DNA from: Antedon mediterranea | Lineage: Eukaryota; Echinodermata; Crinoidea; Comatulida; Antedonidae | Direction of reading: 5' to 3' | Length of the DNA stretch: 64,000 nucleotides | Assembly (NCBI RefSeq): GCF_964355755.1 | Contig: NC_092678.1 | Location: forward strand, 14,046,922 to 14,110,921 | Part shown: positions 20,780 to 44,305 of the stretch, piece by piece | Layout of the letters: each line of letters opens with the position of its first letter | How positions within the stretch are numbered: position 1 is the stretch's first letter | Notes under the pieces: generated by a model | What the model saw: only the letters and a program-made list of their open reading frames with translations | What the model was told of the DNA's origin: nothing | Database searches by the model: none | Position numbers and translations under genes: made by a program

Positions 20780-21119
20780 CAATTCTATCGTTCTTGTGTT
20801 GATATATTTACGATAACAATGGTGATGAAATTCAAAATATGGATGCTTTGTTATTATGTCTTCATATGACGCATTAAGAATATCTAGCTCAGATACTAGT
20901 TTATTAGCAATATCTTTACAGGTACCATCTAAGTTTACCCAGGGAAGAGTTAAATTGTAATTTAACTCTTCCCTGGTTTACCCATAACTTGGTACAAGCA
21001 ACAACCTTATAAAATCGAACTTCCGTAATTGGAAATGCCGTTTTATCAGTAATGTTTTCATGGTGAAAACAACATTTTATTTGAAGATCACACACGTGGC
21101 TTTCATCAATCGAAGCCAT
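20780..21119 (-). pseudogene. Unknown zinc-binding-like exon, interrupted (copy 1)
   Basis: Same 5' exon as 33,140-33,436 (starts MASIDESHVCDLQIKCC) but broken by the 36-bp palindrome at 20,940-20,975, which adds residues WVNQGRV and a premature stop. Not a plexin segment; it lies where the missing IPT/PSI exons should be. Confidence 0.7.
20940..20975. mobile_element. 36-bp perfect palindrome with target duplication
   Basis: 17-bp arms beginning CAGGGAAGAGTTAAATT around a 2-base centre, flanked on both sides by GTTTACC(C) (20,933-20,940 and 20,976-20,983). Copy 2 has the empty site with a single GTTTACCC. CAGGG ends and a 7-8-bp duplication point to a hAT-type insertion reduced to its two terminal repeats. 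Confidence 0.85.
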
Positions 21120-42355: not shown

Positions 42356-43341
42356 CACTCCGGCCGAGCTTCACTCCGGCCGCGCTTCAATCCGGCCGCG
42401 ATTCATTCCGGCCGCAGCTATGGAGCGCCAAATGAGTCTTTTACAACCGAGACACGTTTTTTGTAGAGAATCAAAATAAACATTTGTAATCATACAGTAT
42501 ATTTTTTCTCTTTCAGGATCACAACAACATCGCAAGTGTTTTAAATTAGGTCTAATGCTAAAACAAAATAATTTATGTGTTTTATCCAATGTAATAGGCT
42601 AGTATATTAATTTTAATTTGATTAATTAATGTAATTTATTGCAATATACCCTATATGTCATATTATTTTTATCATATATAAATTAAAATATAAAATCATT
42701 GTAAATTGGACTGTACAAAAATGATATATTAATTCTTGATACAATTCCAGGTTACATTAATTAGACGGATATTTGATTTGAAATAAATAAATTAATATTG
42801 TAAATATTGTTATTAACTATAACAAACATCAATAATAATTGATTATTTGAAATAAATTAATTAATATTTTACATATTGTTATTAACTATAATTAGTAAGT
42901 ATGGGTACTGGCAAGATAAAATGTTATAAAAATAAGGGTTTTAACTAATTTTTAATGTTAATAAATGTAAAGCTATAAAAATAAATGTACATAGAAAGAA
43001 TATTGTTATTCAAGCACTAATTAGACGGGTATTTGATTATTATTTTATTATTGAATTTAATTAAGTTAAGTTTAGTTTGAAAGAAAAAGCAGTTCCAACT
43101 TCTTTGAATGTTATTGTTAATGAAAAAAGTAAAATTGTTGCTAATAAATATTCAACTAGCCTAGTTCCATTTAAATTCACCAAGAATTTGTTATAACACT
43201 GAACAGTATAGAAAACTTAGATATGGGCGCTCCATACTAACGGCCCCTTTGCACAGGAAGTCGAATTGAATATATAGCGGCCGGAGTGCATAACATCGCG
43301 CTAAACTGATACGGCGGCCGGAGTGAAGCGCGGCCGGAGTG
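42356..43341. mobile_element. CACTA/EnSpm-like non-autonomous element
   Basis: 986 bp with ends CACTCCGGCC...GGCCGGAGTG and repeated subterminal boxes (CTCCGGCCGCGCTTCA). CACT ends with clustered subterminal repeats fit the CACTA superfamily; the target duplication is at most AT. It sits in the plexin sema coding region between 42,339 and 43,351, with GT 9 bp beyond one end and AG 15-16 bp beyond the other. Confidence 0.7.
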
Positions 43342-43677
43342 ATCGGCTACCTAAATTGTAATCAACATTATTAACTAAACATCGAATGTAGATCTCAGAA
43401 AATGTATGAAATGAGTTTTCTTGACAAATTCGACTCAGTCGTGAATGAAAGTAATCAGTATCATCTGGCCTATGAAACAGAATAAGTATATCCTTCAAAG
43501 AGAATGTATTTGTAAAACTGATATAAACCAACCTACTAGACCGTAACAACTTCCCCAAGGTTTTTTAAAACTTGGAGATGGTGAAAAAGTATTAAATTGA
43601 ATATTACGAGCTTCAAAAATCATCTCTGTTTCAAGATGTCTTCTGGCATTAATATACCTAGAAAACTCTACTTGATC

Positions 43678-43710
43678 CATAGAGATATTATAGTGAACTA
43701 TATCTCTATG
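43678..43710. mobile_element. 33-bp palindrome with target duplication in the sema exon
   Basis: Arms start CATAGAGATAT and end ATATCTCTATG around a short AT-rich centre; CTTGATC(C) flanks it at 43,671-43,678 and 43,711-43,718. Same architecture as 20,940-20,975 (CA...TG ends, 7-8-bp duplication) but a different sequence. Confidence 0.8.
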
Positions 43711-43792
43711 CTTGATCCAATGACGTATGACCAGATGACACATATAAAACGTTCCTTTTGATAACATCATCTCTATCCCATTTGGGGATCCA

Positions 43793-43858
43793 GTCAAGTC
43801 GCCCCATTGCAAAGTCACCCCATAACAAAGTCGCCCCATAACAAAGTCGCCCCATTTG
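43793..43858. repeat. 16-bp minisatellite inside the sema exon
   Basis: Three to four units of GGGGCGACTTTGTTAT (minus strand). They lie between two CAAATGGG octamers, which could be an 8-bp target duplication. They introduce TGA stops. Confidence 0.7.
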
Positions 43859-44305
43859 TACTATCACCCAACACACCAGGTGCAATGATTCCAACTGCTG
43901 ACAGTTCACTCACTACTATTTCATCTATTACTTTACTTTCATGTAATTTGTTTAAATCCACAAGAGATCTTCCTTCAAATCTTCCATTGTTTCCTCGTCC
44001 GCACGTGATCAATCGTTCATGATCATAATCAATTTCTAATATTTTATTTATGTTATCACAATCATCTGATGAACATGTTGAAATATTAGCAATGATATTA
44101 AAATCTTCTGACAGTCTGTACAGTGTGTTGTAAGCTCCTATGTAGGTATCTCCTGTTGTACTATGGATTTTGACATGGTACAGAGCTTCATTTTCATGAG
44201 GTGTAAATTTGAGTAACACATCATTGTCGAATGCCTGGATGCTTAGCAGAATGTTGAAGAATATAGCAGAAATGCAAAAATGTTTAACAATGTTGGAAAA
44301 CTCAT

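What the first reader, a model, noticed from the sequence alone, without database searches (positions are those of the whole stretch)
43671..43718. Second nano-palindrome, inside the sema exon, with CTTGATC(C) duplication
A 33-bp palindrome with CA...TG ends and a 7-8-bp duplication breaks the plexin frame. Removing it and one flank rejoins SSGHTSLDQ to VEFSRYINARR exactly. Its sequence is unrelated to the one at 20,940, so this is a class of event, not one family. Such TSD-flanked mini-elements recall internal eliminated sequences, but nothing here shows that they are removed from DNA or RNA.
Basis: partly seen in the sequence, partly recalled or inferred. Interest (0 to 1): 0.75.

Follow-up and report, generated by a model that had tools for sequence, protein, structure and literature searches.

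The report
Transposon excision scar in plexin pseudogene
The tiny palindrome is most likely the scar left when a P-type jumping gene cut itself out and the break was sealed; the genome holds more than a thousand sites of this form, and this plexin copy is a dead duplicate of intact neighbours, so nothing needs to be removed for a gene to work.

Summary
In detail: window 43671-43717 is CTTGATC + 33-bp palindrome + CTTGATC, and the 40-bp excess breaks a plexin-like sema frame. The hint at internal eliminated sequences is not supported: 13 paralogous matches read through the site, the six aligned lack the palindrome, and the window copy has four further frame-changing lesions. It is a pseudogene.

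The palindrome belongs to a family (A; 521 + 536 matches); the one at 20,940 to another (B). Families C, E, K and M have the ends of P-superfamily transposons found here. Junctions are diverse (31 distinct forms in 50 C loci); arms stop at 17-20 nt although the parent ends run on for 27-32 nt. Drosophila P-excision junctions look the same (17-nt tails; PMC2895639). A prediction from one transposon's repeat found 14 palindromes, control 0; 7 of the 14 have exact 7-bp duplications.

Best reading: end-joining scars of P-superfamily excision. Open: no parent element for A or B was found, and terminal-repeat-only MITEs are not fully excluded.

The parts
43671..43677 (.). left copy of the 7-bp target duplication, CTTGATC
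   Evidence: six aligned paralogs have a single, slightly different copy at the site
43678..43710 (.). 33-bp palindromic scar, family A: inverted terminal fragments (about 21 and 11 nt) joined head to head
43711..43717 (.). right copy of the 7-bp target duplication, CTTGATC (43718 C also matches)
43778..43853 (.). 76-bp minisatellite-like insert in the same exon (76 mod 3 = 1), shared with the second broken copy and absent from six aligned paralogs
43524..43558 (.). 35-bp insert absent from the second broken copy and from L073; 1-nt and 2-nt deletions lie close by
43842..44231 (-). upstream part of the plexin-like sema exon
   Evidence: 93% to the second broken copy, 67-77% to 13 copies that run through, 80% to one partial copy, 34-45% to more distant ones
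20933..20982 (.). second scar in the window, family B: GTTTACC + 36-bp palindrome (20940-20975) + GTTTACC

Best explanation
A P-superfamily DNA transposon inserted into one copy of a tandemly duplicated plexin-like gene and duplicated 7 bp of target (GATCAAG on the coding strand). It was later cut out. The Drosophila P transposase leaves 17-nt 3' tails of terminal repeat on both sides of the gap; the two tails have the same sequence in opposite orientation, and end joining, with trimming and small inserts, fuses them into a short palindrome between the two target copies. The gene copy was then duplicated together with the scar. Shown: the anatomy, the repeat families, transposons with the ends of families C, E, K and M, the diverse junctions, the limit on arm length, the empty paralogs, the other lesions. 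Inferred: excision as the event at this very site, since no parent transposon of family A was found.
For: Parents: PF21787 (P/THAP9-type transposase) has 35 matches here. Twenty-four regions holding 25 of the 35 were fetched; 13 of the 24 have, within about 4 kb of the match, an end of family C, E, K or M. Elements with both ends and exact 7-bp duplications include L067 (6,324 bp, 32-bp repeat CATGGAGGTATAAAAATAGA...), L063-L065, L123 and L124. Diversity: 31 distinct forms in 50 C loci (first 50 of 415), 28 in 50 E loci (first 50 of 134), 11 in 14 M places, 32 in 49 A loci (57 in the first 100 places, 8 tandem-array units dropped). Limit: longest arm 20 nt of a 32-nt repeat (C), 17 of 32 (M), 19 of a 27-nt end seen on one side each of L066 and L072 (E). 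Prediction from the repeat of L063-L065: 14 palindromes, control 0. Duplications: C 17 of 20 loci exact, E 6 of 6 (four 7-bp, two 8-bp), M 7 of 14 exact and 3 with one mismatch, first A and B sets 29 of 40. Two strongly one-sided copies, with about 5-7 nt of one repeat, lie between exact duplications (L100; L136). Target consensus GTTNAAC; Galileo of the P superfamily has 7-bp, rarely 8-bp, GTANTAC (PMC4168063, passages). Drosophila P-excision junctions have this architecture (PMC2895639, passages and parts of tables 1-3).
Against: No element with family A or B ends around a transposase was found: two pattern tests for an AGGAGA extension gave 0, the 24 transposase regions gave none (L122 and L123 hold B-type scars only), and a B end without a near partner has none within 9 kb (L121). 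Arms in A reach 21 nt and in B 20-23 nt, more than 17. One 36-bp form makes up 9 of 49 A loci and forms an array with 43-bp spacing. Overlaps at junctions are not clearly above a random-trimming null: P = 0.06 (C), 0.32 (E), 0.39 (M). The 14 M places are about 9 sites: one site occurs three times and another four times, as copies of a larger repeat, and 4 of 14 have no clear duplication. Later deletion inside an inserted element could mimic a one-sided scar. No site was seen both filled and scarred.
Confidence: 0.78

Rival explanations
1. Terminal-repeat-only MITEs: the palindromes are themselves non-autonomous elements of about 20-42 bp that P-superfamily transposase moves, and each site is an insertion.
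For: Many copies, many distinct 7-bp duplications, both orientations, recurrent identical 36-bp forms of A and B.
Against: Junction forms are diverse; two one-sided copies with about 5-7 nt of one repeat have exact duplications, and such an end should not be able to insert; arms stop short of the 27-32-nt ends; a 22-bp element leaves little room for two bound ends (inference).
Confidence: 0.15
2. Post-insertion collapse: deletion of the middle of resident transposons during replication, driven by their inverted ends, not transposase excision.
For: Would also leave duplications and diverse junctions (inference; no call tests it directly).
Against: Does not predict a stop at 17-20 nt in three families whose ends continue to 27-32 nt.
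Confidence: 0.05
3. Internal eliminated sequence or other programmed removal from somatic DNA.
For: Frame-breaking, flanked by direct repeats, local frame rejoins when 40 bp are left out.
Against: Paralogs without the insert; four other lesions remain; P-type ends in the genome explain the class.
Confidence: 0.01
4. Unconventional intron or introner removed from RNA.
For: In an exon, palindromic, flanked by repeats; by eye a 28-nt GT...AG span can be drawn on the coding strand.
Against: That span is far below usual intron size (recalled); the exon is broken elsewhere too; the same class occurs at hundreds of other places. Not tested with RNA.
Confidence: 0.01

Closest known systems
P-element excision junctions of Drosophila melanogaster (P{wa} assay, Rad51-deficient flies; PMC2895639, passages and parts of tables read)
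   Same: Two inverted fragments of the terminal repeat, up to 17 nt each, fused with microhomology or small inserts between two intact target duplications.
Galileo (P superfamily, Drosophila; PMC4168063, passages read)
   Same: 7-bp, rarely 8-bp, weakly palindromic target duplication (GTANTAC there, GTTNAAC here).
   Different: Galileo copies are long elements with long internally repetitive ends (abstract opening of PMC3573991); the passages read mention no scars of this kind.
MITEs
   Same: Short, inverted ends, target duplications, high copy number.
Paramecium internal eliminated sequences (titles and abstract openings; the rest recalled)
   Same: Short, in exons, flanked by a short direct repeat.
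   Different: piggyBac-like enzyme and TA boundaries (recalled); no evidence of removal here.

Membership tests
P-superfamily excision scar | two intact copies of a 7-8-bp target duplication | tested here: met
   exact at the window site; A and B 29 of 40, C 17 of 20, E 6 of 6, M 7 of 14
P-superfamily excision scar | inverted fragments of the ends of a P-superfamily element | tested here: inconclusive
   met for C, E, K, M; no parent found for the window's own family A or for B
P-superfamily excision scar | arms limited by the second-strand cut (17 nt in Drosophila P) | tested here: met
   longest arms 20 (C), 19 (E), 17 (M), greedy upper bounds, against ends of 32, 27, 32 nt; not testable for A and B
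P-superfamily excision scar | diverse junctions with small overlaps or inserts | tested here: met
   31 of 50, 28 of 50, 11 of 14, 32 of 49 distinct; excess of overlap over chance not shown
P-superfamily excision scar | same site seen filled before and scarred after | not tested
   needs other individuals or related species; none held
TIR-only MITE | homogeneous copies descended from a master | tested here: not met
   the 36-bp form of A (9 of 49) is a partial exception
TIR-only MITE | both ends long enough to be recognised | tested here: inconclusive
   two one-sided copies with exact duplications, L100 and L136; later deletion could mimic this
Internal eliminated sequence | removal restores a working frame | tested here: not met
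   four other lesions in the same exon
Internal eliminated sequence | absence from somatic DNA | not testable with these tools
   no reads held

The most novel reading that the evidence does not exclude
Some of these palindromes, above all the recurrent 36-bp form of family A that also builds an array with 43-bp (36 + 7) spacing, move or multiply on their own with P-superfamily transposase supplied in trans. They would then be among the shortest transposable elements known, and excision scars would be a birthplace of new mobile elements and satellites.
Probability: 0.12. Interest if true: 0.8.

Novelty: new member of a known kind. Interest (0 to 1): 0.5.

Why it matters
P-element scars are known from laboratory flies. 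Here another genome appears to keep more than a thousand of them from several P-superfamily lineages, including two (A, B) for which no complete element was found. Each scar records one break and its repair, so the cut position of each transposase and the repair style of the germ line can be read from sequence alone. It also warns that such palindromes in exons can be mistaken for introns, eliminated sequences or MITEs.

Tried and rejected
Internal eliminated sequence and intron readings: set aside because of paralogs without the insert and further lesions. Singletons: rejected by genome searches. TIR-only MITE was my own first reading; it was demoted after the junction diversity. Looking for complete A and B elements by an AGGAGA extension failed, as did nine more transposase regions. 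Excess microhomology was not shown. The pattern GTTAAACCAN{22,52}TGGTTAAAC gave 28 + 38 matches but its reversed control 27 + 6, so I used it to discover families, not as a count. PF21787 had no match in the tool's 14 control genomes, but their kinds are not shown, so this is weak. Host: I guessed a bryozoan from size and chromosome number (search), found nothing to support it, and leave the host unnamed; the first 6,000 bases of contig C18 showed no mitochondrial-looking frames.

Selection: loci were 20 high-ranking places from each BLAST list; those were picked by size class, those are 20 unpaired arms, and those the first 20 of 50, all from the first listed places on contig C1; the ten regions were chosen for scores or long frames. 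Junction counts use the first 100 listed places per pattern (M: all 28). Arm lengths are greedy matches, hence upper bounds; patterns forced arms of at least 9-11 nt and total lengths of at most 50-52 bp. Some places are copies of one site (for example L143, L144, L146), so loci are not all independent events.

Changed on checking: exact one-sided copies are two, not three (L095 has one mismatch in its duplication); family E ends were seen on one side of each element only; flanks of M and six E places were fetched and M came out mixed; confidence lowered from 0.80 to 0.78 and two rivals raised by 0.01 for this.

Full report
OBSERVATION. Window 43671-43717 reads CTTGATC [CATAGAGATATTATAGTGAACTATATCTCTATG] CTTGATC, with one more matching C at 43718. 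A mechanical scan of the window for exact direct repeats around exact inverted ends finds this site and the one at 20933-20982 (GTTTACC, 36-bp palindrome, GTTTACC), apart from a poly-T artefact, and nothing in ten Markov controls; a second scan with other limits agrees. On the minus strand the plexin-like frame ..NVLYVSSGHTSLDQ is interrupted at the palindrome and goes on as VEFSRYINARR.. in another frame.

THE GENE IS A DEAD COPY. The genome (354,431,138 bases, 18 contigs) has a cluster of plexin-like copies on the same chromosome. Of 25 protein matches listed, 13, all at C9:12.23-12.92 Mb, run through the position of the palindrome in one open frame without stops. Six of the 13 were aligned: each has a single, slightly different target copy (for example TCATTGGATCCAGTAGAG in L073) and no palindrome. 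Two copies carry it: the window's and one at C9:13.91 Mb, 180 kb away, 97.5-98% identical over at least 2.3 kb. Both also share a 76-bp minisatellite-like insert that shifts the frame. The window copy has in addition a 35-bp insert and 1-nt and 2-nt deletions. The palindrome therefore sits in a duplicated pseudogene, and leaving it out would not give an open exon. This removes the reason to think of eliminated sequences or RNA removal.

BOTH PALINDROMES BELONG TO REPEAT FAMILIES. A search with the window stretch gave 50 matches, most of them covering little more than the palindrome, and the one at 20,940 gave 80, both strands counted. In 40 fetched loci, 29 stand between exact duplications of 7 bp or more, mostly different from site to site. 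Exact 15-mer arms of family B number 370 + 380, reversed control 0. Pattern counts: family A 521 + 536 matches (an uneven pattern, so not every site matches on both strands), family C 415 per strand, family E 134, family M 14, reversed controls 0 in each case. Not every match was checked for a duplication, and some are copies of one site. From 100 loci of A, B and C an automatic rule took 64 exact 7-bp duplications, 44 distinct, with the symmetric consensus GTTNAAC.

PARENT TRANSPOSONS. PF21787, the RNase H-like domain of P-element/THAP9-type transposases, has 35 matches here. Twenty-four regions holding 25 of them were fetched. L067 is an element of 6,324 bp with duplication GATACCG, a 32-bp perfect repeat beginning CATGGAGGTATAAAAATAGA, and a 590-aa frame that scores for PF21787. 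L063-L065 are about 5.55 kb, 99.0-99.5% identical to each other, with 32-bp repeats CTGAGACAACAATCAAAGAG... and three different 7-bp duplications. L123 (4,231 bp) and four others have CAAAGATCTTAT... ends, family K; only one K scar was seen, at C4:27907459. L066 and L072 have one family E end each, L069 and L126 one end of a variant of C. In all, 13 of the 24 regions have within about 4 kb of the transposase an end that recurs as the arm of short palindromes. No region has A or B ends around its transposase; L122 and L123 hold B-type scars.

SCARS RATHER THAN MOVING PALINDROMES. If the palindromes moved themselves, a family should consist of copies of a few masters. Instead the middle differs: 31 distinct forms in 50 C loci, 28 in 50 E loci, 11 in 14 M places, 32 in 49 A loci after dropping 8 units of one array. 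Two copies keep only about 5-7 nt of one repeat and still lie between exact duplications (L100; L136), which insertion of the palindrome does not explain, though a later deletion could. In Drosophila, P excision leaves 17-nucleotide 3' tails and end joining yields, for example, acccagac CATGATGAAATAAC(AT)GTTATTTCATCATG acccagac (PMC2895639, passages and parts of tables): the same anatomy. A prediction from the CTGAGAC repeat alone gave 14 palindromes, control 0, no arm above 17 nt. Their flanks are mixed: 7 of 14 have exact 7-bp duplications (five distinct sites, one present three times), 3 more have one mismatch, and four with TGTAGG-type flanks look like copies of one site inside a larger repeat. 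Six E places fetched all have exact duplications, four of 7 bp and two of 8 bp.

WHAT SPEAKS AGAINST. Families A and B, the two in the window, are tied to the P superfamily only by the duplication length, the target consensus, the form of the ends and the scar anatomy; two tests for parents failed. Their arms reach 21 and 20-23 nt, so the cut would lie deeper than in Drosophila. Overlaps at junctions exceed a random-trimming null only weakly (P = 0.06, 0.32, 0.39). The 36-bp form of A recurs at 9 of 49 loci and forms an array with 43-bp spacing at C1:19904699-19905121. Preferred joins can explain recurrence, since in the fly table one join was seen 14 times, but self-movement of this form is not excluded.

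VERDICT. A real feature, ordinary in mechanism, unusual in scale: what looks like a natural archive of P-superfamily excision scars, one of which lies in a plexin pseudogene. Whether such genome-wide sets are already described I can judge only from six searches of the open library; none of the titles and abstract openings shown describes one, and searches showed 15 of 27 and 15 of 73 papers.

Noticed in passing
C1:19904699-19905121 and L058: Arrays whose unit is scar plus target duplication: 43-bp spacing (36 + 7) for family A, eight units listed; direct repeats of about 37-38 bp containing CCAGGGAAGAGTGAAATTACACTCTA in L058. Possible birth of satellites from scars.
   Followed up: partly
L063, L064, L065 (C1, C3, C8): Three 5.55-kb P-superfamily elements 99.0-99.5% identical, each with its own 7-bp duplication and a 794-aa frame: recent movement.
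   Followed up: partly
C9:12.23-12.92 Mb and window 43.5-44.2 kb: Large local expansion of plexin-like sema genes: 13 matches with a through-running exon plus two broken copies.
   Followed up: partly
window 43778-43853: 76-bp insert of ATGGGGCGACTTTGTT-like units in the sema exon, shared by both broken copies; origin unknown.
   Followed up: no
C4:21338583-21338651: Two different scars side by side sharing one GTTAAAC, as if a second transposon had used the duplication of the first as its target.
   Followed up: no
L121:200 (C1:4172100): Family B end without an inverted partner within 9 kb; possible remnant of the missing B transposon.
   Followed up: partly
L142, L145, L148, L152: Family M palindrome with similar TGTAGG / ATGTAGGGCTAC flanks at four places: a scar carried along inside another repeat.
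   Followed up: no
L057 (C1:3582015-3582641): 427 bp between two family B ends inside a larger inverted repeat that includes the flanks.
   Followed up: no
window 43260-43340: Short GCGGCCGGAGTG repeats next to the plexin copy.
   Followed up: no
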